DNA of 64,000 bases from contig CALUVB010000004.1 of the NCBI GenBank assembly GCA_944324115.1, positions 1 through 64,000 on the forward strand, read 5' to 3'. Origin of the DNA: an uncultured Elusimicrobiales bacterium (GTDB lineage Bacteria; Elusimicrobiota; Elusimicrobia; Elusimicrobiales; Elusimicrobiaceae). Each line of letters begins with the position of its first letter. Position 1 is the first letter of the stretch. A model generated the notes under the pieces. The model saw nothing but the letters and a program-made list of their open reading frames with translations. It did no database searches and was not told the origin of the DNA. The position numbers and the translations under genes were made by a program. Positions 48,957 to 62,244 of the stretch are shown piece after piece.

Positions 48957-49029
48957 AGCCGAGAATGGGACTTGAACCCACAACCTTTCGCTTACAAGGC
49001 GAGTGCTCTACCAGTTGAGCTATCTCGGC
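48957..49029 (-). tRNA. tRNA-Thr (anticodon TGT)
   Basis: Minus-strand cloverleaf: acceptor GCCGAGA/TCTCGGC, D-arm GCTCAACTGGTAGAGC, anticodon stem CTCGC/GCGAA with loop CTTGTAA (anticodon TGT), T-arm GGTTCAAGTCC, discriminator T, no encoded CCA. Just upstream of the TerC gene on the same strand. Confidence 0.94.
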
Positions 49030-49094
49030 GTTATTCGGCTGTTTTATTTTATCAAATTTGACGCTTGTTCTACAAACGGGGTTTTAAATAATTG

Positions 49095-49103
49095 TGCTAC
49101 AAT
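49095..49103 (+). promoter_or_regulatory. Extended -10 promoter of the tldD-like gene
   Basis: TGC then TACAAT, identical to the tRNA-Pro promoter element, 31 nt before the start codon. Confidence 0.6.
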
Positions 49104-49134
49104 AAACATATATATTTTGAAGAGGGAGCCTAGT

Positions 49135-50832
49135 ATGAAGAAAATTTCTATGCTGCTGGCCTTATTGGCTGTGGGGGTATGGGGTGCGGCGGAACCGTGT
49201 GATATGGCGCAGCAGACGCCTTTGCGTTTAATGGAACAGGAATTGAAGCGCAGTTTTAAAGTATTAAAAAAGCAAAAACCGCCTATTTACTATTTGTCTT
49301 ATACTTATACGCAAGGGCAGCAACAGTCTTTGGGTGTGGCCTATAACGGAGTGGCTTTTCAAGAAGAAAAAGAAGTATCCGTGGCGGAGGTAATGGCTCG
49401 GGCCGGCAGCCCGCAGCTGGACAATACCCATGCTTTACGCGCAGAGAGGGAAAACTGGACAATTCCCAATTCACAGACGCCTTTGCCGGATCCTTCGGAT
49501 ACGAAAGGTTTTTTGTCTGAGTGGTGGGCGCTTACGCAGCAAGCGGCGGAAAGAGCCCAGCAGGATTTGAGCCGGGTGGAGTCTAATGTGCGTTCCATGG
49601 CCTACACGCGGGACCAATCGGCCGATTTTGTATTTCCTGCAAAGCAAGATTATTGTCATACGCAGCCCTTGCAGCAGGTAGATTTAAAACGTTTTGAGGA
49701 ACGGTTGTTGGCGGCGTCTAAGTTAACATTAGGCAAGCCATTCGTTTTGTCTGCTTCCTTTATCATGACGGTAAGCCAGGGGCACCGCTATTTCGTAGAC
49801 AGCCGCGGCACGCGTCTGAAAACGCCTTATTCTTTCCTTCGTCTGATTTATCAGTTGGAAGGGCGCAGCCCAGATGGGTTGGAAATAAGCCGCGACGGTA
49901 TTTATGATGTGGCATCGCCCGAGCAGTTCCCTTCCCGGGAAAAATTATTGGCAGATGTGGAGAAATCATTGGCAGAGTTGCAAGAGCTTTCCCAAGCGCC
50001 GGAAGGCACCCCGTATAATGCGCCGACCATTTTGAAAGGCCGCGCGGCGGCGGTATTTGTGCATGAAGTGATGGGACACCGGCTGGAAGGCTATCGCTTG
50101 AAAAATGCCGATGACGGACAAACCTTCTCCGGTAAAGTCGGCCAGCAAGTTATTTCTCCGCTGATTACCATCACGGCAGACCCGACGATGACGGAATTTA
50201 ACGGAGAGCCCTTGCGCGGACATTATGAATATGATGATGAAGGAGTAAAAGCCCGTTCGGTTACTTTGATAGAAAATGGCGTGCTGAAAAACTTTTTAAT
50301 GCAGAGCAGTCCTATTGAGGGATTTGCTTTTTCCAATGGGCATGGCCGCAAACAAATCGGCCGCCGGCCGGAGGCGCGTATGAGCGTTATCCGTGCTACC
50401 GCTTCCGAAACAGTGCCCTATGAACGTTTGGAAGAAATGCTTATTGAACAAATCAACAAACAGGGCAAACAATACGGATTTATTGTGGAAGATTTGAGCG
50501 GCGGATATACATTAACCGGCACCAGCCTGCCGCAAAGTTTTAAATTGCAGACTAAGCGGGTATTTAAAGTGTATCCAGACGGGCATAAAGAAGTCGTGCG
50601 CGGCTTAGACGTGGTAGGTACGCCGCTGGTAAGCTTCAATAAAATTATAGCCGCCGCAGATGATGATACCTTATTCAACGGCACCTGTGGGGCTTCTTCG
50701 GGTAATGTGCCGCAAAGCAATATTGCTCCCAGCCTTTTGTTTGAAAATCTGGAAATGGAAAAAACCCGCAAAAATGATTTTAAGCTGCCCGTTTTGCCTG
50801 CGCCGGATAGGGAAGGGGGAAAGACGAAATGA
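49135..50832 (+). CDS. Exported TldD-like metalloprotease
   Basis: 565 residues from the ATG at 49135 (GAGGGAG upstream). Unlike cytoplasmic TldD it begins with a signal peptide (KKISMLLALLAVGVWGAAEP). The TldD active site is intact: H310-E-V-M-G-H315 in AAVFVHEVMGHRLEG, the HExxxH zinc motif, and a Cys in NGTCGASSGNVPQSN matching the third ligand. TldD/TldE heterodimers degrade or trim unfolded peptides, as in microcin B17 maturation. Residues 20-240 are a longer N-terminal region than in E. coli TldD. Overlaps the TldE-like gene by 4 nt, so the pair probably assembles outside the cytoplasm. Confidence 0.85.
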   Translation: MKKISMLLALLAVGVWGAAEPCDMAQQTPLRLMEQELKRSFKVLKKQKPPIYYLSYTYTQGQQQSLGVAYNGVAFQEEKEVSVAEVMARAGSPQLDNTHALRAERENWTIPNSQTPLPDPSDTKGFLSEWWALTQQAAERAQQDLSRVESNVRSMAYTRDQSADFVFPAKQDYCHTQPLQQVDLKRFEERLLAASKLTLGKPFVLSASFIMTVSQGHRYFVDSRGTRLKTPYSFLRLIYQLEGRSPDGLEISRDGIYDVASPEQFPSREKLLADVEKSLAELQELSQAPEGTPYNAPTILKGRAAAVFVHEVMGHRLEGYRLKNADDGQTFSGKVGQQVISPLITITADPTMTEFNGEPLRGHYEYDDEGVKARSVTLIENGVLKNFLMQSSPIEGFAFSNGHGRKQIGRRPEARMSVIRATASETVPYERLEEMLIEQINKQGKQYGFIVEDLSGGYTLTGTSLPQSFKLQTKRVFKVYPDGHKEVVRGLDVVGTPLVSFNKIIAAADDDTLFNGTCGASSGNVPQSNIAPSLLFENLEMEKTRKNDFKLPVLPAPDREGGKTK

Positions 50833-52475
50833 AGAAATATATTTGGTTGTTGCTGCTTATAGCCTTGTGCCCGTTGAAGGCGGCCCAGCTGCCTGATAAT
50901 ATGTATTTTCGGGCGATGCAAGATGAAATGCACCGTACCCAAAAAGAGCTCCGCTCTCCCGGCAGTCCCCGGCCTTTTTTTACGGCCTATAAAGTGATAG
51001 AAAACAGCACCCAAAGTTTTGAGGCTCAATTTGGAACGGCGGTGATTACGGTTCCTCATGTTTTTACGAATGTGACGGCGCAGGTATATGTGTATGCCGG
51101 AACGGACAAGAAGAACAGCTCCGGTTTTAGAAATGACGCCTATTCCTATGCTCCGGAAATTTCCACTGCCGTGCCACAAAGTTATGAAGGGTTGCGGCGC
51201 GTATTGTGGCGTTTGACGGACAGCGCATATGTCGCGGCGGCCAATACCTATGAGAAAAAAGAAGCTTATAACCGCCAGAAAAATATAACAGATGTCTTGC
51301 CGGATTTTACCTCGGCGCCTAAAGCCGCCTATGTGGGGGCAATGGTCCCATTTCCGCAGGTCAATGAGAAAGCGTATCAAGATTTGGTCAATCAGCTGTC
51401 CGCTTTGGGCAAAGAGTTGCCTTATTTGGAATCTTTCTCTGTCCTGTTGACCCGGAACAAACGGGATATTTACTTTTTAGACAGCGAGGGAGACTTTTAC
51501 CAATACAGCCAGCCCTCCGTTACAGTGGATTTGTTTGCTTCTCTGCGCAATAAAGAAGGATACAAAAGGCAATTTACAGAGCAAATCTCCCTGCCGTGGG
51601 ACCAAAACCCGGACCGCGATGCATTGGAGAAAAAGACGCAGGCATTTTTAGACCAACTGGCCGCCGCCTATCAAGCCCGCAAAGCAGAGCCCTATTTGGG
51701 GCCGGTGCTGTTGGAGCCGGAAGCAGCGGGTGGATTTTTTAACCAATTATTTATTCCCAATGCCAATAATCCCAGACCGGTTCCGTCTTCTTTTTGGGAA
51801 ACAGACCCTATGGCCGGGCAGTTTAAAGATAAGCTGGGTATGCGGGTGGTCAGCCATTTGTTAGACGTCTATGACCGGCCCTATGTGCGGGAATATGAAG
51901 GCAAGATGTTGCAAGGCTTTATGCCGGTAGATGACGAAGGCGTGGAAGCGCAGCAGCTGCAGCTGGTACAGAGCGGCAAGCTGCTGGCACTGCCCTTATC
52001 GCGCAGTGTTATGAAAGGGCAAAAACACAGTAATGGACATGCGCGCATGAGTAACTGGAGCTATCCCCGGGCTATGTTGACTAATGTGTTTGTGGTGCCT
52101 AAAAATCCACTGCCGCGGGAGCAATTGGAACAGCAGCTGCTGCAGCGTTGCCAAGAGCTGGGCTTGGAATATGGTTATATTTTCCCGCGTTTTCCGTCTG
52201 TTTATGATGAAGATCAAGAAGTGGCTTTTGCCTGGCGTATTTATGTTTCCGACGGGCACAAAGAGCCCGTATATGGATTGCATTTGCCGGGAATTACCAC
52301 CCGCAGCCTGCGCGATATTTTAGCCGCTGGGAATGATGCGGAAGTTTCCCATTTTTCCGAAAAAAATGTTTTTGTCCCTTTTTCCGTTATTGTTCCCTCG
52401 TTGTTGGTAGATGAAATGGAAATCTTGCCTACCCAGCTTAAACCGGAGCGCAAGCCTTTTGTTCCGTTGCCTTAA
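50829..52475 (+). CDS. Exported TldE/PmbA-like partner protein
   Basis: 548 residues with a signal peptide (YIWLLLLIALCPLKAA). It has the same architecture as the preceding TldD-like protein, including a shared C-terminal pattern (YEGKMLQGFMPVDDEGVEAQ, HSNGHARMSNWSYPRAMLTN). The zinc motif position reads EAAGGFFNQLF, with no His-Glu, as in TldE/PmbA, the non-catalytic partner. Together the genes encode a secreted version of the TldD-TldE peptidase. No clear terminator follows; the next gene starts 108 nt later. Confidence 0.8.
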   Translation: MKKYIWLLLLIALCPLKAAQLPDNMYFRAMQDEMHRTQKELRSPGSPRPFFTAYKVIENSTQSFEAQFGTAVITVPHVFTNVTAQVYVYAGTDKKNSSGFRNDAYSYAPEISTAVPQSYEGLRRVLWRLTDSAYVAAANTYEKKEAYNRQKNITDVLPDFTSAPKAAYVGAMVPFPQVNEKAYQDLVNQLSALGKELPYLESFSVLLTRNKRDIYFLDSEGDFYQYSQPSVTVDLFASLRNKEGYKRQFTEQISLPWDQNPDRDALEKKTQAFLDQLAAAYQARKAEPYLGPVLLEPEAAGGFFNQLFIPNANNPRPVPSSFWETDPMAGQFKDKLGMRVVSHLLDVYDRPYVREYEGKMLQGFMPVDDEGVEAQQLQLVQSGKLLALPLSRSVMKGQKHSNGHARMSNWSYPRAMLTNVFVVPKNPLPREQLEQQLLQRCQELGLEYGYIFPRFPSVYDEDQEVAFAWRIYVSDGHKEPVYGLHLPGITTRSLRDILAAGNDAEVSHFSEKNVFVPFSVIVPSLLVDEMEILPTQLKPERKPFVPLP

Positions 52476-52583: not shown

Positions 52584-53795
52584 ATGAAACACGTAACTGT
52601 GTTTTATAAAGCTGTTAGTTGCCTGCTTTCTGTCATGTTAGTAGGCACTTCTGTTATGGCGCAGGATATAAACAGCAAGTTACTGCAAGCCCGTAACCGC
52701 CAGCAGGCAGATGTTGATTGTATTCTGTCTCAGATTCAATCAACCTCTTTTGCTGGCCAAGATGGTGAAGAATATGAGGTAGATGTAGCAAAAGCACTGA
52801 AGATGCTGGCTTGGACAGCCTCAGCCGGTTTTGCTGCTGTGGCGGCGAAACATATGGTGAAAGCTTGGAAACAGGGCTTTTTTGATACAGGATTTAACTA
52901 CCATGCTTTAAATGATAAGGCTTGGCAGCAAATAAAAGCCGTCAAGCTTGCGGAAATACGGCAGTTGGAACAGCAGATAAAAGAAGATGCTTTGAAACGG
53001 TATCATAGCCGTTTTTCTCTTTCTGAGTTGGGAGAAGATAACCTGCGTTTTCTAAATGAAGTGATGCGCCGCAATGTGGAAGAAGTGGGGATTCCGCTTC
53101 CTCAGATTTACTATGAAAAACCACAACTCAGTTTATCCGCATATCTAGAAAATAGAGGGAAAGAAGCAATAAAAATATTTATTGTCAAACCGGAAAAAGA
53201 AATGGAGTTTGGACGAAAAGTGCTCAGCCAGTTGAAAAGATATAAAAGATTTTCTTATATAAAGACGCTGCCTCTTGGTGAAAGCGTGCTGGAATACGTA
53301 AGTCCGCTTGGCATTAGCAAAAGACTCTCGCAGGAAATATACTATGATATGCTATGTGACAATATTTTTAGAGATTGTATAGAGGAGATTTCCGCTGAAC
53401 AAGCGTATAAGAAGATGACCTTTAATGGCCGTTATATCGTGGTAGGCAAATATTTTTTGTCTATAAGAAATGTGGTCTCCATTGTGGCGGCGGGGGCTTT
53501 GCTGGGGGCTATGTCTTGGACAAACAAATTGTCTGAACAAGAAATCATGGCCCGGGTAGAAGAAAACCCCGCTTTATTTTTTAATCTTTCTGATGAAGAT
53601 TTGAAGCGCATAGAAAAATCAGAAAAATTGACTAATAAATATATGGAATTCTGCGATCATATTCATGAGATAGCTTCTTTGTCCTCTGACGATTTGCACA
53701 ATATGTTTCAGCAAAGTCACCATATGCTGCAGCAGGAAAAAGCATTGGCAAAGCAGCATATAATTCGGGAAATAGAAGCAGCCATTGCCCGTTAA
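52584..53795 (+). CDS. Unknown exported protein
   Basis: 403 residues. A signal peptide ends TSVMAQ. The rest is mostly helical and charged (QIKAVKLAEIRQLEQQIKED, LKRYHSRFSLSELGEDN), with a hydrophobic stretch VVSIVAAGALLGAMSW at about 305-320 that could be a membrane segment, then more helix to HIIREIEAAIAR. The DNA is richer in A+T than its neighbours and codon choice is less GC-leaning, which may mark acquired DNA. I do not recognise the family. A strong terminator ends the gene. Confidence 0.75.
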   Translation: MKHVTVFYKAVSCLLSVMLVGTSVMAQDINSKLLQARNRQQADVDCILSQIQSTSFAGQDGEEYEVDVAKALKMLAWTASAGFAAVAAKHMVKAWKQGFFDTGFNYHALNDKAWQQIKAVKLAEIRQLEQQIKEDALKRYHSRFSLSELGEDNLRFLNEVMRRNVEEVGIPLPQIYYEKPQLSLSAYLENRGKEAIKIFIVKPEKEMEFGRKVLSQLKRYKRFSYIKTLPLGESVLEYVSPLGISKRLSQEIYYDMLCDNIFRDCIEEISAEQAYKKMTFNGRYIVVGKYFLSIRNVVSIVAAGALLGAMSWTNKLSEQEIMARVEENPALFFNLSDEDLKRIEKSEKLTNKYMEFCDHIHEIASLSSDDLHNMFQQSHHMLQQEKALAKQHIIREIEAAIAR

Positions 53796-53810
53796 CATTA
53801 TTGGCATATA

Positions 53811-53840
53811 AAAAAGGACCCGTGAAGGGTCCTTTTTTTT
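53811..53840 (+). terminator. Terminator after the unknown exported protein gene
   Basis: AAAAAGGACCC, loop GTGAA, GGGTCC and eight T. Confidence 0.93.
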
Positions 53841-53919: not shown

Positions 53920-54885
53920 TTAAGGCTGTTGAAGCAATTTTTGGGCTATACGGTGAGCAAGAGACTCTCTGTCTAGCTCATCGATTTTTTCTAATTGTTC
54001 TCGTGCTTGAGAGGTGAGGCCTTGTTTTCGTAAGTTTAAATAATTCATAAATAAGGCCAACTCATTATCTGGATTTTTTTTCAGCAGTTGCTGGGTGCGC
54101 TGCATAGAACGTTTATATTGTTTCGCCTGATAGAGCCACATGGCGCCAAGAGCTTGTATATCTTCCCGCTGCGGAGCCAAAATGGAGGCCGCTTCCAAGT
54201 CTGCCAAAGCGTCTTGCATGAGGCCCAGCCCTTTATAGGCGCTTGCGCTGAGGAGCCAATAATTGGGGTCTTTCGGATTTTCCAACTTGGCCATAGTGAT
54301 ATTAATAAACGCGTTCGGATAGTCCCGCTGGCGCAAAAAGGTAAACGCGTAGCGGGCGCGGTTGACGGGAGGCGCCTGCGGATTAAGCTGGAAAAACACA
54401 TCGTAATATTGCCGCGCTTTAGAATAAAATCCCATTTCAATATAGTTTTCCGCCTGGCCGGAAAGGGCTTCTAAATTATCCGGTTCCAATTGTAAGACTT
54501 GGTTATAAAGCTCTATGGAGCGGTCCGTTAAACCGGTCCGTTGATATAAAGCCGCGGCCGCTAAAAGCAGGGGTATGTTTTTATGATGGAATTCCAACGC
54601 TTCCTGGTATACTTCCAAGGCTTTTTCCGGGTAGCCCAGTTGTTCGTAAGCCAAGCCCAACAAACGGTAAGCGCGCGCTTCGCGCCGTTTGATATTGCGG
54701 GTTTTGTAGATGTAGCGGCTGAGATCGATGATGGCCTGCTGGTAATCACCGCTGTCAAAAGTTTCCCGGGCTTGTACGAACTCTTGGCGGTCTTTTGAAC
54801 TGATGCCAAAAAGACCCGCCTGCACGGGCAGCGCGCAGCAAAGCAAAGTGATGGTAAAATAAAACAGTTTAGTTTTGTAAAACAT
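53920..54885 (-). CDS. Exported TPR-repeat protein
   Basis: 321 residues. Signal peptide ends PVQAG. Seven or more tetratricopeptide repeats fill residues 35-310 (ARETFDSGDYQQAIIDLSRY, RLLGLAYEQLGYPEKALEVY, IELYNQVLQLEPDNLEALSG). Such periplasmic TPR proteins are scaffolds for envelope complexes. It is the last gene of the six-gene minus-strand run; its start overlaps the patatin stop by 17 nt. Partner unknown; the operon suggests an envelope complex with TolC and the patatin. Confidence 0.85.
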   Translation of the reverse strand: MFYKTKLFYFTITLLCCALPVQAGLFGISSKDRQEFVQARETFDSGDYQQAIIDLSRYIYKTRNIKRREARAYRLLGLAYEQLGYPEKALEVYQEALEFHHKNIPLLLAAAALYQRTGLTDRSIELYNQVLQLEPDNLEALSGQAENYIEMGFYSKARQYYDVFFQLNPQAPPVNRARYAFTFLRQRDYPNAFINITMAKLENPKDPNYWLLSASAYKGLGLMQDALADLEAASILAPQREDIQALGAMWLYQAKQYKRSMQRTQQLLKKNPDNELALFMNYLNLRKQGLTSQAREQLEKIDELDRESLAHRIAQKLLQQP

Positions 54886-55828
54886 CTTCTATCGCAAAAA
54901 GAATAATATCTTCTTCAAGCGCCTCTAAATTTTCATTGGCTGAACGGATACCTACTTCTCCCGCTTGGTGTAATTTATCTAATTCTAATGTGCTGACTCC
55001 TAAAACGCGGTTTTGAATGACAAAATTGGCTTTTTGTGAAGACTCCTCTATCATCGCAGCTCCCCGCACATCTCCTACGCGAAGCAAATACGCGGCTACA
55101 GTTTGGGGCACTTGGGAAGAAAAATCCGGTGGGGTGACAGAGGCAATAATATAATCGGCGCCCTTTTGTTTGACTAAATTTACGGGCAAGTAATTGACCA
55201 CAGCGCCATCTACCAAGTAGCGGTGCCGATAGGATACCGGGTCAAATATGCCGGGCAAGTTCATGCTGGCGCGTACGGCAATATCCACTGGGCCGGAGTC
55301 AAATATCACTTGTTCCCCGGTTTTGACGTCCATAGCGGCGGTGGCAAAAGGAATCACCAAATCCTCAAAACGCATATGCCCTATTTGTTTGTTGAAAAAT
55401 TGCTGAAGATTTTGTGATGAAGGAAGCTTTTGCAGAAAAAGCAGTTTAAACAGACCAATTAAATTGAAATCGGGGGTAATGGTATCCATTTTTATATGGT
55501 TTCCGATTTCCCATAATTGTTCTGTAGGCAGCCCTGCCGCATACAGCGAACCCACCACCGCCCCCATAGATGTGCCCGCCATCATGTCTATCGGCACGCC
55601 GGCATTATGAAGCACTTCCAGTACGCCCACATGAGCAAACCCCCGCACGCCTCCGGCGGAAAGGGCTAAGCCGATTTTAGGCCGTTTGTGCTCGGGCAAA
55701 GAAATAAATTCTTCCCATAAAAAATTGCGCAAAATGCCGTCTTCTGTCACTTGGGGCAGCGCATGCAGCGGTGCGGAAAACGCTGCCAGCAAGAACGGCA
55801 CTAAGAGTGCTAGTCGTATCTGTTTCAT
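54869..55828 (-). CDS. Exported patatin-like phospholipase
   Basis: 319 residues with a signal peptide ending PLHA. Patatin catalytic parts are complete: oxyanion loop SAGGVRGFAHVGV, nucleophile Ser87 in AGTSMGAVVGSLYAAG, and Asp207 in YLVDGAVVNYLPVN. It should hydrolyse acyl chains of lipids in the periplasm or outside. The RssA/NTE-type core has no C-terminal barrel, unlike PlpD. Genes for an outer-membrane beta-barrel and TolC lie in the same operon. 21 nt after the tolC stop. Confidence 0.9.
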   Translation of the reverse strand: MKQIRLALLVPFLLAAFSAPLHALPQVTEDGILRNFLWEEFISLPEHKRPKIGLALSAGGVRGFAHVGVLEVLHNAGVPIDMMAGTSMGAVVGSLYAAGLPTEQLWEIGNHIKMDTITPDFNLIGLFKLLFLQKLPSSQNLQQFFNKQIGHMRFEDLVIPFATAAMDVKTGEQVIFDSGPVDIAVRASMNLPGIFDPVSYRHRYLVDGAVVNYLPVNLVKQKGADYIIASVTPPDFSSQVPQTVAAYLLRVGDVRGAAMIEESSQKANFVIQNRVLGVSTLELDKLHQAGEVGIRSANENLEALEEDIILFAIEDVLQN

Positions 55829-55849
55829 ACCCCCGCCTGCCGTTATAAA

Positions 55850-57151
55850 TTATAAATCTTGGCCGATGGCCCACTCCAGCCCGGCTTTGGCTGTCAAATT
55901 ATTGCGTACGGCTTCATAATAATTTCGTCCGGTTTGGTAATATGCGTCTAACGCTTCCAGCGCATGTATGTCCGGTTGGGCGTTGCGCTCGGCTTGAGTG
56001 AGCTGCTTTTGTACGTCTTGCCAAGCCTGCTGGCGGCTGAACACTTCAGCTTGCCAGAATACCAGCTCAGCATAATTTTCAGCTACTTGCACGCGGATTT
56101 TATCTTCAATGGCCGCGCGGTGCAAGGTGCTTTGTTTTTGTTCTGCTTTTCGCTGGGCGTTCTGTGCGGTGAACGTATAGTTAATGGGCAAACGCACAGC
56201 CAGAGAAATCTGTTTGTTTACATCGTTTAAATCGTCAAATCCCAGTTGTTCATAGCTGCCGGTTAAAATTAAATCCGGATAGCGGCGCGAAAGAGCCAAA
56301 TCAATAGCCAAATTATCCAACTCTAACGCATAAATGGCGGCTTTTAACTCCGGGCGAAACTCCATAGACCACAAATTGAGCTTAGGTAAATCCAGCTTTA
56401 CTTCAACAGGTTTGAAATCTCCCTTTACTTTAATTTGCGCATTCAGCTCTTTGTTCAATGCCACCAACATAGCCAGCTGTGCTTTTTGTAATTCGTTTTG
56501 GGCTTCATTTTTTAAGGAAGTCAAATGCGAATTCAAATAAAGCGCTTTTACCCGTTCCCAATTTCCGGCGCGTAAGGAACGCATGTAGCGGTTGGATTTC
56601 TCCTGTACATCTTGTGCCAGGGCCATCGTATGCTGGGCGTATAACAGACGAAAAAATGTCTTTTTGATATTGAGTACGGTGGCATTTTTTACCGCTTCAT
56701 ATTTACTCTGCACTTGTTTCAAATTGGCTTGTGCCATTTTTAACGCGCTGCGGAAGCGGCCCCCGGCATATAAATATTGGGTGGCAGTAACCCCTACACC
56801 AAAAAATTGGTGTTTCGTATCATCGGACATAGAATCATTGCTGGGAATGAAACGATTAGCCACTGAATCGGGCAATACCATGGGGTATTCCAAATCATAC
56901 CATGTGGCGGTGCCTTGTACGGCCAATTGCGGCAAGAATAAAAATTTAGCCTCTTTGACTTTTTGTTCCGCGATAATAATTTCTTGCTGAGCGGCCAAAA
57001 ATTCGCTGTTATTCTCCAGGCCCAGCCGAATGGCATTTTCTAAGGTCAGTTCCTCATTGATTAGGCTGGAAAAGCGCAGCCCGTATTCACTTTGCGTCGC
57101 CGCCGGCAGGGCCAAACATAGAGCCAAGCCTATCCAAAAAAGTTTTTTCAT
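55850..57151 (-). CDS. TolC-family outer membrane efflux protein
   Basis: 433 residues. Signal peptide ending PAATQ. Two internally similar OEP repeats: LTLENAIRLGLENNSEFLAA with YLYAGGRFRSALKMAQANLK, and later ALELDNLAIDLALSRRYPDL with PINYTFTAQNAQRKAEQKQS. TolC trimers form the outer-membrane exit duct of efflux pumps and type I secretion. No inner-membrane pump or adaptor gene is next to it; a HAMP protein gene overlaps it by 4 nt instead. Confidence 0.9.
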   Translation of the reverse strand: MKKLFWIGLALCLALPAATQSEYGLRFSSLINEELTLENAIRLGLENNSEFLAAQQEIIIAEQKVKEAKFLFLPQLAVQGTATWYDLEYPMVLPDSVANRFIPSNDSMSDDTKHQFFGVGVTATQYLYAGGRFRSALKMAQANLKQVQSKYEAVKNATVLNIKKTFFRLLYAQHTMALAQDVQEKSNRYMRSLRAGNWERVKALYLNSHLTSLKNEAQNELQKAQLAMLVALNKELNAQIKVKGDFKPVEVKLDLPKLNLWSMEFRPELKAAIYALELDNLAIDLALSRRYPDLILTGSYEQLGFDDLNDVNKQISLAVRLPINYTFTAQNAQRKAEQKQSTLHRAAIEDKIRVQVAENYAELVFWQAEVFSRQQAWQDVQKQLTQAERNAQPDIHALEALDAYYQTGRNYYEAVRNNLTAKAGLEWAIGQDL

Positions 57152-57612
57152 ACGCCCCCATTGTTTTTCTTTTTTATTTCTTCTTCTAAGCGGTCCATCA
57201 TTTTATTGAATTCGTCTTGCAAATCGGTCAGCTGGTCTCCTTTGCGCAAGTGTATGCGTTGGGAAAAATCTCCTTTGGCAATTGCTTTGCACGCCTGTTC
57301 AAAGCGATACACCGGCCCGGCCATTTTATGGGAAACGATGGCGGAGATTAAAACCACAAAAATCACATAGATGACAATTTTGTAGATAAAACCATAAGCG
57401 ATAGACGGGAAGTGATCATATATGGGCTGCAGCAGCACGGGATAATTGTCAAAAATGTCATTTAATGTAAATGTCAGCTCAAAAGCCATGATCAGTAAGC
57501 CGGCCAAAACACTCAAGATAATCAGCATCATGTAGCTGAATTGAAGCTTTTTCTTAATAAAAATAGTGCGTCTTTTAAATTGCGGGGCACCGGCCGCAGG
57601 CTGCTTGTTCAT
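57148..57612 (-). CDS. Inner-membrane protein with HAMP domain only
   Basis: 154 residues. A basic N-terminus, TM1 (about 28-50), a short periplasmic loop (ELTFTLNDIFDNYPVLLQPI), TM2 (about 75-95), then a HAMP domain (HKMAGPVYRFEQACKAIAKG, then LTDLQDEFNKMMDRLEEEIK). It ends there: no kinase, cyclase or methyl-accepting domain. Stand-alone HAMP proteins are rare. The HAMP region may transmit periplasmic state to a partner. Overlaps tolC by 4 nt and follows the barrel gene by 17 nt. Confidence 0.85.
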   Translation of the reverse strand: MNKQPAAGAPQFKRRTIFIKKKLQFSYMMLIILSVLAGLLIMAFELTFTLNDIFDNYPVLLQPIYDHFPSIAYGFIYKIVIYVIFVVLISAIVSHKMAGPVYRFEQACKAIAKGDFSQRIHLRKGDQLTDLQDEFNKMMDRLEEEIKKKNNGGV

Positions 57613-57629
57613 AAAACCTCTTTGTACTG

Positions 57630-58337
57630 TCAGAAATTAGTGACGTAGCGCAGTTGTAAAATGCGCTCATTTTCGTCTCCGCGCCCAATGCGCCGCGCCG
57701 CACCGGACAAAACCAGCGAAGGCGTAATATAAGCATGTGCCCCGATATTAAAGCGGGAATCGCGCATATTATTGATATTGTCCCATTCCGTGAGCAGAGA
57801 GAACCATTCGGTGAGTCTCCAGGACATGCCCAAAAAGAAATAAATGTCGTGGCGGTCAAAATCAGATAAATTGACCCCGGCGGAAGCATTTAAGCCGGGA
57901 GTAAAAATTTCCCGCGACATGGTAATATAGCCGCCTTTGCGGTCGTCCATATATTTTTTGGAGTCGTGATTATATCCGTAGCGGCGGCCGTCATATCCAA
58001 TGGCGATAGCCGGTAAATAAAGGCTGCCGTCAAACAGTTTCCATTTGACTTGAAAATCCGGATTCAAGATTTTGATATCGTCGGAGTTGCCTACAAATTC
58101 ATATACCGCCAGTGAGAATCCCAGATTGATTTGTGGAATAACACCAAAATCCAAACTTTCCATAATACTGCCGTTGGCGTACGCCCGGGTAAGGAAAGAC
58201 GCTTGGTATTTATCAAGTACATTGGCGGTGGGAACGTCAATAATCAATGTTTCCGGCGCATAGCCGTCATATTCTTGGGCTGTTGCACAGAATGGGAAGA
58301 GTAAGCCTGCAAGCAGAATAAAATATTTTTTCATCAT
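57630..58337 (-). CDS. Probable small outer-membrane beta-barrel protein
   Basis: 235 residues. Signal peptide ends FCATAQ. The mature part is made of alternating amphipathic strands with many aromatics (IPQINLGFSLAVYEFVG, GYITMSREIFTPGLNASAG, SLVLSGAARRIGRGDENE) and ends in a strand closing with Phe (LQLRYVTNF), the mark of BamA substrates. Predicted 8-12 strands. Start is either of two adjacent Met codons. Family not recognised. Confidence 0.75.
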   Translation of the reverse strand: MMKKYFILLAGLLFPFCATAQEYDGYAPETLIIDVPTANVLDKYQASFLTRAYANGSIMESLDFGVIPQINLGFSLAVYEFVGNSDDIKILNPDFQVKWKLFDGSLYLPAIAIGYDGRRYGYNHDSKKYMDDRKGGYITMSREIFTPGLNASAGVNLSDFDRHDIYFFLGMSWRLTEWFSLLTEWDNINNMRDSRFNIGAHAYITPSLVLSGAARRIGRGDENERILQLRYVTNF

Positions 58338-58358
58338 ATATGTTGGAGCTCCTGTCTT

Positions 58359-58916
58359 TTATAACCAAATGCGAGGCTCTTTTTGTTCAGGTTTTTGTAT
58401 GTAACGTATATTGTGTACAAAGATAAATTCGCGCGAGGCCATAAAGTCGTTTTTATCCCGGGGGAACTCTAATTCCACCACGCCTTCTTCCATGCGGGAA
58501 GTGTCATAGACTACAGCTCGGTTCCAGCGGTCCAGCTGGGCGGTGTCCTTGTCTAAGGAACGCGGGTTCCAGTAATTTCGCAGCACCACTTCTCCTTTGA
58601 GCAACTGCCCGCCGGATACGGGAGAGGTCTTTTCTATTACGTCGGTAGTAAAAATTGTTTTCCCTTCGCAGGGGCCGTTTATAAACGTCACTTTATAGCG
58701 CGGTTCGCATTCCGTAGGTTTACTGTTCAAGCGGGCCAGGGAATAGGTGGCGTAAGGTTTCCCTTCATATAAACAGGCAGCGAAAACATTGCTGCTGAAA
58801 TTGCGCTCATATGTGTCTGCGGTAAAAGGGCGGTTGTAAGCGGTGGGCTCTTTCTCTTGATGGCAGCCCGCCAGGAATACGAATAAAAAGAAAAACGGAA
58901 GAAGTAGTTTTTTCAT
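58359..58916 (-). CDS. Unknown lipoprotein
   Basis: 185 residues. Lipobox LAGC makes Cys18 the anchor. The mature part has three or four cysteines (ACLYEG, TECEPRYK, GPCEGK) and a beta-rich feel with VTFINGPCEGKTIFTTDVIE and VVELEFPRDKNDF. First gene of the six-gene envelope operon, 21 nt before the barrel gene. Not recognised. Confidence 0.75.
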   Translation of the reverse strand: MKKLLLPFFFLFVFLAGCHQEKEPTAYNRPFTADTYERNFSSNVFAACLYEGKPYATYSLARLNSKPTECEPRYKVTFINGPCEGKTIFTTDVIEKTSPVSGGQLLKGEVVLRNYWNPRSLDKDTAQLDRWNRAVVYDTSRMEEGVVELEFPRDKNDFMASREFIFVHNIRYIQKPEQKEPRIWL

Positions 58917-59312
58917 AACATCTCCATATAATCAAATGAAAAATCCGGGAATGAAACCCTTATCCCCAGTATAGCTGTTTTTGGAAGCTATTTACAAGGG
59001 AAAAATTACTGCCATGAATATTCCAACGTGCATTTGCCCGCACGAGCGGGGCGGCGGTTTTCCGTCTGAGCGGTTATAAGAGCGCTGACAGGAAGTGGAC
59101 ATGGCGTGCAAAGAAGTCATGGCGGCGTGAGCGAAGGAAAAGGGGACTTCTAAATTATGGTACGCAGCATTTGCTTGGCGACCTGTGGAATAGGCGGGGA
59201 TAAGTTGGGTAAAGATACGCCGGCATTGGCGGGATATTAGTGCGGCCAGGCGCAGCAGTTTACTTACAGAGGCTTATTATATTGTCTGTGCCGGCTATGT
59301 ATTGCGGTTTGG
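58917..59312. other. Gene-free region upstream of the envelope operon
   Basis: About 400 bases with no credible ORF. Should include the promoter of the lipoprotein-to-TPR operon near 58920-58975. The rest resembles other gene-poor stretches of the window and shows no recognised RNA. Confidence 0.45.
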
Positions 59313-59345
59313 AGCAAAAAAAACGCCCGCTTGAGCGGGCGTTTT
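59313..59345 (-). terminator. Terminator of the coiled-coil membrane protein gene
   Basis: Stem AAAACGCCCGC / GCGGGCGTTTT, loop TCAA, and a run of eight T on the minus strand, 16 nt after the stop. Confidence 0.92.
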
Positions 59346-59360: not shown

Positions 59361-61328
59361 TTACTGGGGAGAGTTGGCGCGGAGTCTTTCCCATTCTTTT
59401 TTCATCTCTTCCCATTTTTTGTTTGCTTCTTCCATCTTTTCTTCCAATACGCCGTCTAATCTCATGCGGGCCAAGGTGCTTTCCAATTCTTTCATTTCGT
59501 TTTGAAGTTCTTTGACCCGGGTAACTACTTGTGCCGCCAGCACTTCGCCCTGTTGGGCGGAAGAAAGCGAAGAATCTGCGTTGAGGGCTTGGTTATTTTT
59601 ATCATAGAAGACCATAGCCGGCATACGGGCATCTTCTATAAATGAGCTGGCGTTTGGCGCCGTGGGGGTAATGAAGATGCTGGGTTTTACTTGTACTTGC
59701 GCTTCCTGCTGGCCTTCCTGCGGGCGGTGGGCCGGCGGCTGCAACTGCTGCCATTGCGCCGTGTTATAAGCTGTATATGCCGGAGACAGACTGTCCAGTT
59801 GTTGCTGTAATATTTGTATTTCTTCTTCGCTCTGTTCAGCCTCTTTGGCTTGTTTTAATTTATATTCTTTAAATGTTTGCAAACTGTTTTGGGCCACCCC
59901 TAATGGGTCCGGGTAAAGTTCGCCTCCCATCGCAGTGACCAACGCTTCGGCGTCTTTGCCGGCGCCGATCCAATAGCAGTCTCCTTCGGGGCATTTAGAG
60001 TCCGTAAGATAGGCGTAGTATTCCTTGGTCAATCCTTCTGCATCGGGGAAAGCCATTGCGTCGGATTCGGGCTGGTATTGGGCTTTTTCTTTCCCTAACA
60101 CCAAGATTACATTCAGCGGGGGCGGCGCAAAACCCAATGCCTCTGTTAAGTTTTGTATGGAGCGTTGCCCGGCTTGACGGGCTTGCTGCATTTCTTGTTC
60201 TTGCTGCAACCGTTTTTCTTCTTCCGTCAAAGAAGGGCACTGAGTACTGGCAGATGTTTGGTAAGAAGACATGGAATCTCCGGAGCAAGAAGAAAAGGTG
60301 TTGAAAATGCTGGCGCTTTGCTGGCCGGCGGCGTCTTCTTGGATTTGTTTCACCCGTTGTTGGCGGAATTGGTTTTGTTTGCGGGCAATGACCCGTAAAG
60401 CTGCTTCGTAACGTTTCTTGTCGGCTGGGGAAAGGGTTTGCCCTTTTTCGGGGGAATACCAGCGGTTCTCCAGTTCTTTAAGACGTTCTAAGGCTTGGCT
60501 CGGGTCTAAAATATCAGACCAAGTCATACCCGCAGGCGTATCAGCCGCAGCCGCGGCATTATCCGGCCCGGAAGAAGTATTTTTTCCCATATTTAATGAG
60601 CCGGAGGCAAAACGTTCTGTAGGGCGGCGCCGGGAGTAATCTATCCCTTCTGAAGAAGCCAACGCCCACGCTTGTGCGTCATGCAGCGGGCGCGTTTGTG
60701 CAGCGGAAGGGGTTTCTATACCAAAAAAGCTCTTAATCGGGTTAAACAAGCGGGCCCATTTGGAATCGGGTATAGCGGGTTGTTTGGGAGCGGGGCCGGC
60801 TGTATATTTGGCGGCCCGTTCCAAACGGACTAATTTGTCATAGGCGGAATCCGAGGCGTTGATGTCATGCATACCGCGCTGGGCTGCTTCCGGAGCGGTT
60901 TGCTGAACCAATACCCATTCGCCTTCCTCATTAATAAAGCGGGCATCATCATAATCATAATTTTCCGGAAAATATGACGTGGTGGTAGATGACGGGTCTG
61001 CTTGCTCGGCGGGCAAATACTCGGTGCCGGCATAACGTATTTCCGTGCTCTCTTGCTCGGGGGGATATATTTCCCCTTCGGCATAAAGAGCGGGCGGCGT
61101 TTCTTTGGGCTGTTTTTGTTTCCCTGCAAACAAAGAATATACCTTGCGCACTAATTCACTCAAGGGATTAGAAGTAAAAATTTGGGGAGAGGCTTTTTTG
61201 CCTTGTTCAGAGGAAACGGCGGGAGCCGACGTTTCTAAAAAGGGCAGCAATAAAAAGAAAACAATTGCTGCACAAAGCAATACGACTACACATTTCCCGA
61301 CGGTTTTAGCCTTGTTGCTTTTAGACAT
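59361..61328 (-). CDS. Unknown membrane-anchored protein with C-terminal coiled coil
   Basis: 655 residues from the ATG at 61328 (AAGGAG 6 nt upstream); an upstream in-frame start lacks a site. One N-terminal membrane helix (CVVVLLCAAIVFFLLLPFLE, about 14-34) places the rest in the periplasm. The bulk is low-complexity and rich in Ala, Gln, Ser, Pro and Glu. Segments that look folded include PLNVILVLGKEKAQYQ and SKCPEGDCYWIGAGKDAEAL, with two cysteines. The last ~55 residues are a coiled coil (MKELESTLARMRLDGVLEEK). Family and function unknown. Confidence 0.75.
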   Translation of the reverse strand: MSKSNKAKTVGKCVVVLLCAAIVFFLLLPFLETSAPAVSSEQGKKASPQIFTSNPLSELVRKVYSLFAGKQKQPKETPPALYAEGEIYPPEQESTEIRYAGTEYLPAEQADPSSTTTSYFPENYDYDDARFINEEGEWVLVQQTAPEAAQRGMHDINASDSAYDKLVRLERAAKYTAGPAPKQPAIPDSKWARLFNPIKSFFGIETPSAAQTRPLHDAQAWALASSEGIDYSRRRPTERFASGSLNMGKNTSSGPDNAAAAADTPAGMTWSDILDPSQALERLKELENRWYSPEKGQTLSPADKKRYEAALRVIARKQNQFRQQRVKQIQEDAAGQQSASIFNTFSSCSGDSMSSYQTSASTQCPSLTEEEKRLQQEQEMQQARQAGQRSIQNLTEALGFAPPPLNVILVLGKEKAQYQPESDAMAFPDAEGLTKEYYAYLTDSKCPEGDCYWIGAGKDAEALVTAMGGELYPDPLGVAQNSLQTFKEYKLKQAKEAEQSEEEIQILQQQLDSLSPAYTAYNTAQWQQLQPPAHRPQEGQQEAQVQVKPSIFITPTAPNASSFIEDARMPAMVFYDKNNQALNADSSLSSAQQGEVLAAQVVTRVKELQNEMKELESTLARMRLDGVLEEKMEEANKKWEEMKKEWERLRANSPQ

Positions 61329-61421
61329 AAGGACTCCTTCAATACAAAATAAGGTAATTATAGTGTACCCGTTTGGCGGAGCTTTTTCAAGGACTCTTTT
61401 CCTTATAAAACACAAACAAAG

Positions 61422-62186
61422 TTATTGGAACATGCGGCTAAAGAGCCGCTTGGTAATTTGCCAAGATTTATTTAGATGGGCTTGTACTTTATCCCAGAAG
61501 CCTTGTTCTGTTTGTACGGCGGAAGCGGAAACAGCCGGCGGCAGAGGCGGATAATATCCGTTTGTATGGAGCAATTGGGAAAGGTAATTGGAGGGAACGG
61601 AGAAGTTTAAATTTTGGTTTCCTTCCCCTTGATAGGTGGAGAATGCTATGGAAATAACTTGGCCTTGTTCATTAAAAACGGGGCTTCCGCTGGAACTGGG
61701 GGAAATGGGGGCGCTGATTTGGTGCCAAATAGTCCCGTCACTTTTGCGGCGTACCTGACTGATGAGCCCGGAAGTGACCGTATTATGCAAACGGCGCGGA
61801 TTGCCTATGACGGTAATTTCTTGTCCTGGCAGCACATAATCTGAGTCCCCTAAGGTTACCGTAGGCAGATGGCGGGCGTTTATTTTGACAATAGCCAAGT
61901 CTACTGTGGGGGAGAATGCAAGCAGTTGGGCCTGGCCGGAAATGGCGCCTGTATTAAAAGTAATATTGACAAACATGGCGTCTTGTACGACGTGTCTGCT
62001 GGTGGCGATAACGCCGTCTTCAGTTACCACAAAACCCGTACCGGTAAAGGTGGTGCCGTCTTTTTTCAATACATTAACCGCCACAATGGAGGGGGAGTTT
62101 TCTTCCGCTATTTCCACGCGGGTTTTAGCCGGGGCGGCTGTTGACAGGCCCAATAGTAAAAAAAAGCACACCAGGAGACGTTGCAT
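61422..62186 (-). CDS. Exported trypsin-like (S1C/Deg-type) serine protease without PDZ
   Basis: 254 residues from the ATG at 62186, which opens a signal peptide (QRLLVCFFLLLGLSTAAPA). Triad visible: His65 (ATSRHVVQD), Asp96 (TVDLAIVKI), Ser166 (SPSSSGSPVFNEQG, where DegP has GNSGGP). After the protease domain only a short helical tail follows; there is no PDZ domain. It should act in the periplasm. The -10 element TATAAT ends 7 nt before the ATG and there is no Shine-Dalgarno, so the mRNA may be leaderless. Divergent from greA. Confidence 0.88.
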   Translation of the reverse strand: MQRLLVCFFLLLGLSTAAPAKTRVEIAEENSPSIVAVNVLKKDGTTFTGTGFVVTEDGVIATSRHVVQDAMFVNITFNTGAISGQAQLLAFSPTVDLAIVKINARHLPTVTLGDSDYVLPGQEITVIGNPRRLHNTVTSGLISQVRRKSDGTIWHQISAPISPSSSGSPVFNEQGQVISIAFSTYQGEGNQNLNFSVPSNYLSQLLHTNGYYPPLPPAVSASAVQTEQGFWDKVQAHLNKSWQITKRLFSRMFQ

Positions 62187-62193
62187 GTAACAG

Positions 62194-62199
62194 ATTATA
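62194..62199 (-). promoter_or_regulatory. -10 element placed for a leaderless protease mRNA
   Basis: TATAAT on the minus strand, 7 nt before the ATG at 62186. An ATGCCA 17 nt further up is a weak -35. Confidence 0.5.
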
Positions 62200-62244
62200 T
62201 AAATTTCGGGCTTTTTTGGCATGAAAGCGGGGGAAAACGTATAT

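What the first reader, a model, noticed from the sequence alone, without database searches (positions are those of the whole stretch)
53920..58916. Six-gene envelope operon: lipoprotein, beta-barrel, HAMP-only protein, TolC, patatin, TPR
The genes are packed with 4-nt and 17-nt overlaps and gaps of about 20 nt. TolC has no pump or adaptor beside it, the HAMP protein has no output domain, and a periplasmic patatin lipase is included. The set spans inner membrane, periplasm and outer membrane, as expected of a lipid-remodelling or secretion machine. I know no described system with this composition.
Basis: inference. Interest (0 to 1): 0.6.

Follow-up and report, generated by a model that had tools for sequence, protein, structure and literature searches.

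The report
Pumpless TolC paired with periplasmic phospholipase
Bacteria of one poorly studied phylum keep a three-gene set that pairs an outer-membrane channel, normally the exit pipe of pumps but here shortened at its pump-docking end, with a phospholipid-cutting enzyme, which suggests the channel was re-used to look after outer-membrane lipids.

Summary
The six genes are real, co-directional and tightly packed. The genome is an Elusimicrobiota, probably Ca. Avelusimicrobium. But six is not the unit. In 20 of 20 patatin regions from 15 other families the constant part is TolC-patatin-TPR, beside arginine genes. In five genomes chosen for lacking patatin, TolC and TPR are missing there too, argH running into lysA; two genomes of another genus also lack the trio. 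HAMP, barrel and lipoprotein are lineage additions.

The genome's other four TolC genes sit beside pumps. Cluster TolCs have a shortened first periplasmic hairpin in 69 of 69 cases, against 0 of 24 other TolCs. The patatin keeps its catalytic Ser and Asp in 15 of 15, and its best solved relative is PlpD, a periplasmic phospholipase of the outer membrane (PMC11116518). Best reading: an outer-membrane lipid-processing module on a TolC that no longer serves pumps. Function, contacts and spread beyond the phylum are untested.

The parts
58359..58916 (-). Lipoprotein, 185 aa, lipobox Cys18 (58863-58865); model with a tandem Tudor/SH3-like beta fold (pLDDT 74); seen only in some genera of family f1
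57630..58337 (-). Outer-membrane beta-barrel, 235 aa, 12 predicted strands by my count, N-terminal leader; distant YjbH/KdgM/NanC/FapF resemblance
57148..57612 (-). HAMP-only inner-membrane protein, 154 aa: two hydrophobic stretches, short loop, HAMP 94-144, no sensor or output domain found
55850..57151 (-). TolC-family outer-membrane channel, 433 aa, with shortened periplasmic hairpin segments; CORE gene
56543..56569 (-). First TolC hairpin segment (residues 195-203): 9 residues where 24 of 24 control TolCs have 16
55952..55990 (-). Second TolC hairpin segment (residues 388-400): 13 residues where 24 of 24 controls have 16
54869..55828 (-). Exported-looking PlpD-like patatin, 319 aa; CORE gene; catalytic Ser87 (55568-55570) and Asp207 (55208-55210)
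53920..54885 (-). TPR protein with N-terminal leader, 321 aa, probable periplasmic scaffold; CORE gene
58968..58997 (-). Promoter-like TTGTAA-18-TATACT upstream of the first gene (consensus match only; the scan finds 9 sites against 8.6 in shuffles)
59320..59345 (-). Terminator-like hairpin (11 bp stem, T run) between the upstream gene and the operon
53810..53838 (+). Terminator-like hairpin between the convergent gene 52584-53795 and the operon end

Best explanation
A TolC-patatin-TPR module for outer-membrane lipid upkeep. Shown: the three genes keep together and are missing together in the genomes examined; this TolC line has lost hairpin residues that the other TolCs compared keep; the patatin looks exported, has an intact catalytic dyad and has PlpD as its best solved relative. 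Inferred: the patatin acts in the periplasm at the inner leaflet of the outer membrane, cutting acyl chains from phospholipids; the TolC trimer is its outer-membrane platform and perhaps a passive vent for fatty acids or lysolipids, instead of a pump exit; the TPR protein is the periplasmic scaffold joining them. In Elusimicrobiaceae and their relatives a membrane HAMP protein (a signal converter without an output of its own) and a small barrel joined the gene cluster and may tune the module; the lipoprotein is confined to some f1 genera.
For: Block inheritance: TolC and TPR flank the patatin in 20 of 20 patatin regions from 15 families outside f1/f2/f7/f8. In five f17 genomes, chosen because they lack patatin, TolC and TPR are also missing between argH and lysA. 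In both g3 genomes the patatin profile finds nothing genome-wide and HAMP is followed by dapF. TolC hairpins: repeat 1 shorter in 69 of 69 cluster TolCs and repeat 2 in 68 of 69, against 0 of 24 controls; a weak but separate HMMER alignment (E 0.0028) shows a 7-residue gap against CmeC at the same place. The other four TolCs of the genome sit beside pumps. Patatin: Ser87 and Asp207 in 15 of 15; PlpD is the best solved relative at 3.6e-60, the next 9.8e-8. PMC11116518 (abstract, lipid section and discussion read): the PlpD patatin domain is periplasmic and a plpD deletion raises many phospholipids. MlaA was found in 0 of 12 and PldA in 2 of 12 genomes, so such a duty could be vacant. Animal-gut/rumen and groundwater assemblies both carry the trio (record titles, gene order), which speaks for housekeeping rather than a host effector.
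Against: No direct evidence of interaction, localisation, substrate or activity. The module is dispensable: the five f17, the two g3 and a number of f10 genomes have no patatin match. PldA does not replace it neatly: of the 12 genomes tested, one of seven with the trio (G061) and one of five without it (G077) have PldA. MlaD was found in 11 of 12, so other lipid transport exists. Families f4 and f5 gave only weaker patatin matches (best E 1e-51 to 1e-64) and were not fetched; G157 has a short TolC-like piece (87 bits) but no patatin match, so a partial case is not excluded. Trio neighbours are amino-acid genes, which say nothing about lipids. No structure of the cluster TolC was predicted; the hairpin segment was defined on a control TolC, and that it is the docking tip rests on recalled TolC anatomy.
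Confidence: 0.5

Rival explanations
1. Two-step secretion: Sec exports the patatin to the periplasm and the cluster TolC, helped by the TPR protein, passes it to the outside as an extracellular lipase.
For: The patatin has an N-terminal hydrophobic leader and its gene lies next to a channel gene in every trio examined. That TolC can release some periplasmic intermediates is recalled, not looked up.
Against: The channel has lost residues where adaptors are held to dock and open TolC (PMC3391258, abstract and passages), and no energised partner was found among the flanking genes. The closest solved relative, PlpD, was reported periplasmic rather than secreted (PMC11116518). That a folded patatin would not fit a TolC pore is recalled.
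Confidence: 0.15
2. Ordinary efflux: the TolC serves one of the pumps encoded elsewhere, and the patatin and TPR genes are only co-transcribed.
For: One TolC often serves several pumps (recalled). Pumps with adaptors are in the genome.
Against: Four other TolC genes each sit with their own pump. Hairpin shortening in 69 of 69. Joint presence and joint absence with patatin and TPR.
Confidence: 0.12
3. A regulated surface-polymer or envelope-stress operon: HAMP senses the envelope, the YjbH/KdgM-like barrel passes a glycan, and the patatin deacylates a lipid-linked carrier.
For: The barrel resembles YjbH (sub-threshold) and sugar-acid porins KdgM/NanC. In four f11 regions a HAMP relative is followed by a conserved ORF that in L161, the one scanned, is GAF-HD-GYP.
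Against: Barrel and HAMP are not at the trio locus in the 20 regions from 15 other families. Among the ten genes scanned here no glycan enzyme is found. Fold resemblance does not show function.
Confidence: 0.13
4. No shared function: separate envelope genes kept together only because the arrangement is old.
For: The trio sits among amino-acid genes with which a shared function is hard to see, so conserved order alone proves little in this phylum. G157 may hold a TolC piece without patatin.
Against: The trio stays together where the arginine side is replaced (f2, f7, f8) and where both flanks have changed (genus g1), and it is missing as a block.
Confidence: 0.1

Closest known systems
PlpD / PL-Omp85 proteins (formerly type Vd autotransporters; P. 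aeruginosa PlpD, F. nucleatum FplA)
   Same: Closest solved relative of the patatin (5fqu, E 3.6e-60); patatin working with an outer-membrane beta-barrel; periplasmic patatin domain in PlpD (PMC11116518)
   Different: PlpD fuses patatin to POTRA and a 16-strand Omp85 barrel in one chain (PMC11116518); here the patatin stands alone and the neighbouring channel is a TolC, with a TPR protein added
TolC-type outer-membrane factors of tripartite pumps and type I secretion
   Same: OEP family membership
   Different: No adaptor or pump found beside it; hairpin segments shortened
OMPLA/PldA and the Mla system
   Same: Proposed purpose: outer-membrane phospholipid control
   Different: No PldA or MlaA match in this genome, though it has one MlaD match; unrelated protein families
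HAMP-containing sensor kinases and chemoreceptors
   Same: Two membrane stretches followed by HAMP
   Different: No sensor, kinase, methyl-accepting or cyclase domain found; the NCBIfam hits shown are far below cut-off
RssA-type cytosolic patatins
   Same: RssA is the best NCBIfam model (114 bits)
   Different: Below its cut-off of 272 bits; an N-terminal hydrophobic leader is present here

Membership tests
Tripartite efflux pump / type I secretion outer-membrane factor | TolC/OEP family protein | tested here: met
   PF02321 4.8e-30; TolC chains matched with the family profile
Tripartite efflux pump / type I secretion outer-membrane factor | Adaptor and inner-membrane transporter encoded with it | tested here: not met
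   None among the ten operon and flanking genes scanned; the four other TolC genes of the genome have transporters beside them, three with a Pfam-supported adaptor
Tripartite efflux pump / type I secretion outer-membrane factor | Full-length periplasmic hairpin segments, held to be the tips for adaptor docking | tested here: not met
   9 and 13 residues against 16 and 16 in 24 of 24 controls; the equation with the docking tip is recalled anatomy
PL-Omp85 (PlpD, type Vd) | PlpD-type patatin domain with Ser-Asp dyad | tested here: met
PL-Omp85 (PlpD, type Vd) | POTRA and 16-strand Omp85 barrel in the same chain | tested here: not met
   The 319 aa protein has only the patatin Pfam domain above cut-off
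PL-Omp85 (PlpD, type Vd) | Patatin located in the periplasm and acting on phospholipids | not testable with these tools
   Needs fractionation and enzyme assay
RssA cytosolic patatin | Score above the NCBIfam PRK10279 cut-off | tested here: not met
   114 bits against 272
OMPLA/PldA | PF02253 match | tested here: not met
   No PF02253 match anywhere in G000
Two-component or chemoreceptor HAMP protein | HAMP plus output domain in one chain | tested here: not met
   Only HAMP is above a Pfam cut-off; the chain ends 10 residues after it
YjbH family barrel | PF06082 score above gathering cut-off | tested here: not met
   15.4 bits against 24

The most novel reading that the evidence does not exclude
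A TolC-family trimer was converted, early in the Elusimicrobiota, from the exit duct of energised pumps into the outer-membrane platform of an unpowered phospholipid-processing machine: it shed the adaptor-docking hairpin tips and became the constant partner of a periplasmic PlpD-like phospholipase and a TPR scaffold. This would be a split counterpart of PL-Omp85 built on a different barrel, and a TolC with no inner-membrane pump.
Probability: 0.35. Interest if true: 0.85.

Novelty: new variant of a known kind. Interest (0 to 1): 0.63.

Why it matters
TolC-family channels are understood as the end pieces of pumps. A line of TolC that shortens the docking end and is kept as a block with a phospholipase would be a role for TolC outside energised transport. 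It would also suggest how diderm bacteria in which I found no MlaA (0 of 12 genomes) and little PldA (2 of 12) control outer-membrane phospholipids, and it would make PlpD's role testable in a second, independently built arrangement.

Tried and rejected
Six-gene unit: rejected as the core. All 20 same-genus regions fetched (of 60 same-genus genomes) have all six, but the f2, f7 and f8 regions show no lipoprotein, two f1 regions (L154, L155) lack it too, one f1 region (L170) has no barrel, and the 20 regions from 15 other families have the trio without HAMP and barrel.

HAMP as the diagnostic gene: rejected. The 155 of 198 genomes with a HAMP-profile match include distant, multi-copy HAMP proteins; in L158, L161-163 and L165-167 the HAMP gene lies away from the trio.

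Named relatives: of 80 loci, 65 show barrel-HAMP-TolC-patatin-TPR in order (20 of them with the lipoprotein, 1 more with lipoprotein and a second TPR call), 2 (L115, L118) appear swapped because over-long ORF starts were used for sorting, 11 are cut by a contig or stretch end, and 2 (L136, L147) lack TolC and patatin.

TolC hairpin test, limits: the segment was defined on a control (L191). 24 of the 27 non-cluster TolC genes that I count in five genomes were used (one of G062 and two of G077 were not fetched); partners were checked only for the four of the own genome. Cluster rows needed a score above 150 and 350-520 aa, which drops L033 and L160. L036 has a masked stretch in repeat 2. One cluster TolC (L171) keeps 16 residues in repeat 2.

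TolC in genomes without patatin: the A5 profile gives at most 60 bits in f17 and 103 bits in G062, while the trio's TolC of G120 scores only 108 and 104 in two pieces, so that profile alone does not prove absence in G062; the loss there rests on local gene order and on the genome-wide lack of a patatin match. TPR-model hits in the g3 regions lie apart from the barrel-HAMP genes and in much longer ORFs.

Barrel fold: KdgM/NanC (Z 16-18), FapF (Z 16.6) and many unrelated barrels score high; OMPLA also appears (Z 11.9), which I take only as common barrel shape. The lipoprotein's Tudor/SH3-like match is modest (Z 9.5; Foldseek best E 3.8e-3, none at 0.001); no function drawn.

Distribution outside Elusimicrobiota: not established. 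The one genome-contig scan returned records titled Elusimicrobia(les) or just bacterium; the plasmid search gave only patatins below 60% identity, whose neighbours I did not examine.

Literature: five searches listed 2, 7, 3, 1 and 0 papers; I saw listings and abstract starts, and passages of two papers: PMC4827864 (from; no 'patatin') and PMC11257099 on Endomicrobia (no 'patatin', no 'TolC'). The seven papers were not opened. Most subscription journals are not held.
Full report
Observation. A terminator-like hairpin stands upstream (59345-59320) and one downstream (53810-53838), and a promoter-like sequence precedes the first gene, though the promoter scan as a whole finds no more sites (9) than shuffled sequence (8.6). 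Codon comparisons with two congeners give dN/dS of 0.02-0.12 in the 11 of 12 comparisons where dS was not saturated. HAMP, OEP, patatin and TPR are above Pfam cut-offs; barrel and lipoprotein have no family.

Organism. The nearest named hits are uncultured Elusimicrobiales; the contig of G001, a same-genus genome, has the same length (49,497 bases) as a contig of Candidatus Avelusimicrobium excrementipullorum.

Conservation of the six. In the genus, 20 of 20 fetched regions (of 60 genomes) have lipoprotein-barrel-HAMP-TolC-patatin-TPR in order. In f2, 16 of 20 have barrel-HAMP-TolC-patatin-TPR; where the ORF between barrel and HAMP was resolved it is pfkA (Pfam-checked in L031 only), except in L049, where nothing stands between them. 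Of the other four f2 regions two are cut by contig ends (L035, L039) and two (L047, L050; genus g3) lack TolC and patatin. Of 20 further regions chosen by HAMP score, 13 carry HAMP-TolC-patatin and 7 HAMP alone.

The real core. A patatin profile matches 165 of 198 genomes of the phylum, 132 of 142 high-quality ones. I fetched 20 patatin regions from 15 families outside f1/f2/f7/f8. All 20 have TolC-patatin-TPR in that order, with argG or argH upstream of TolC and, in many, lysA, dapF and dapA downstream; I named these neighbours by eye, and by Pfam in one locus (L188). Families f4 and f5, with weaker patatin matches, were not fetched. In f2, and in L159, L164 and L168 of f7/f8, the dapF-dapA side is kept while the arginine side is replaced by response regulator, barrel, (aldolase), pfkA and HAMP; in L156 and L157 (f7) I did not see dapF-dapA after the TPR gene. 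In five f17 genomes, picked because they lack patatin, argH is followed directly by lysA in 5 of 5, with no TolC, patatin or TPR match in the stretches read. In G062 and G077 (g3) the patatin profile finds nothing genome-wide and HAMP is followed by dapF. The trio thus behaves as one unit in what I examined; whether f17 lost it or never had it I cannot say. A possible exception is G157, with a short TolC-like piece and no patatin match.

The TolC. The own genome has five TolC-family genes by my reading of the OEP hits. Four sit beside pumps: HlyD plus RND, HlyD plus MacB-type ABC, HlyD plus ABC-2, and RND (the presumed adaptor of the last had no Pfam hit at the threshold used). Aligned with these and 20 more TolC genes from four genomes, 24 of 24 controls have exactly 16 residues in a hairpin segment in each of the two repeats, and 66-67 residues in the window around it. 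The 69 cluster TolCs have 0-12 residues in repeat 1 (69 of 69 shorter) and 0-16 in repeat 2 (68 of 69 shorter). Shortening is strongest (0-5 and 0-2 residues) in 11 TolCs from families outside f1/f2/f7/f8. A separate, weak HMMER alignment with CmeC of known structure shows a seven-residue gap at the same place. That this segment is the periplasmic aperture tip is recalled TolC anatomy; that adaptors bind the TolC tip is from PMC3391258 (abstract and passages). I infer that this TolC line no longer docks a standard adaptor.

The patatin. It has an N-terminal hydrophobic leader, Ser87 in GTSMG and Asp207, both invariant in 15 of 15 sequences, and PlpD as by far the best solved relative. In PlpD the patatin domain resides in the periplasm and a plpD deletion raises many phospholipids, which its authors read as outer-membrane lipid homeostasis (PMC11116518: abstract, lipid section and discussion read). 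In 12 genomes tested, MlaD was found in 11, MlaA in 0 and PldA in 2. Against a simple replacement story, PldA is in one of the seven trio-bearing genomes (G061) and one of the five without the trio (G077).

Accessories. The HAMP protein has two hydrophobic stretches, a short loop and a HAMP domain; relatives in f2 carry a longer tail. In four f11 regions a HAMP relative is followed by a conserved 414-421 aa ORF, which in the one scanned (L161) is a GAF-HD-GYP protein, a hint that such HAMP proteins signal through separate partners. The barrel model (pLDDT 74) resembles KdgM, NanC and FapF. The lipoprotein model (pLDDT 74) looks like a tandem Tudor/SH3-like fold.

Mechanism. I favour a periplasmic phospholipase held at the outer membrane by a hairpin-shortened TolC and a TPR scaffold, for phospholipid turnover in the outer membrane, with TolC perhaps venting products. 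The linkage, the hairpin shortening and the PlpD kinship are shown; location, contact, substrate and direction of flow are inferred. Secretion of the patatin, service to a distant pump, a polymer-related role and mere co-residence are the rivals.

Novelty. Five literature searches listed no paper that I recognised as describing such a cluster (listings, most papers not opened). The parts are known families; the pairing of a pumpless TolC with a PlpD-like patatin is, as far as I could see, undescribed. Its spread outside Elusimicrobiota is unknown.

Noticed in passing
window 49003-50832 and 50829-52475 (+): A tandem pair of TldD/PmbA-like proteins with N-terminal hydrophobic leaders by eye (Pfam run on the second only, PmbA_TldD_3rd 1.7e-18), suggesting exported relatives of a normally cytosolic protease family; tblastn with the second gives two places beside the operon in 17 of 20 same-genus regions.
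   Followed up: no
window 59361-61415 (-) and 61422-62222 (-): A 684 aa protein with no Pfam family above cut-off and a trypsin-like HtrA-type protein lie upstream of the operon; tblastn finds both in 20 of 20 same-genus regions, the first at only 23-37% identity.
   Followed up: no
window 52584-53795 (+): A 403 aa protein without family and with a leader by eye, convergent with the operon, matched in only one of 20 same-genus regions (L052, 31%).
   Followed up: no
L161 6616-8471, also L162, L166, L167: In four f11 regions a HAMP-only relative is followed by a conserved ORF that in L161 is GAF-HD-GYP, a possible split receptor in which HAMP and output are separate genes.
   Followed up: partly
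12 Elusimicrobiota genomes: MlaD-type MCE protein in 11 of 12 but no MlaA match in any, so the outer-membrane end of this lipid pathway may differ in the phylum.
   Followed up: partly
L176, L179, L180, L182, L183, L186, L187, L190 (families f10, f15, f20, f22): TolC hairpin segments almost wholly gone (0-1 residues in repeat 1, 0-2 in repeat 2), the most extreme shortening seen.
   Followed up: no
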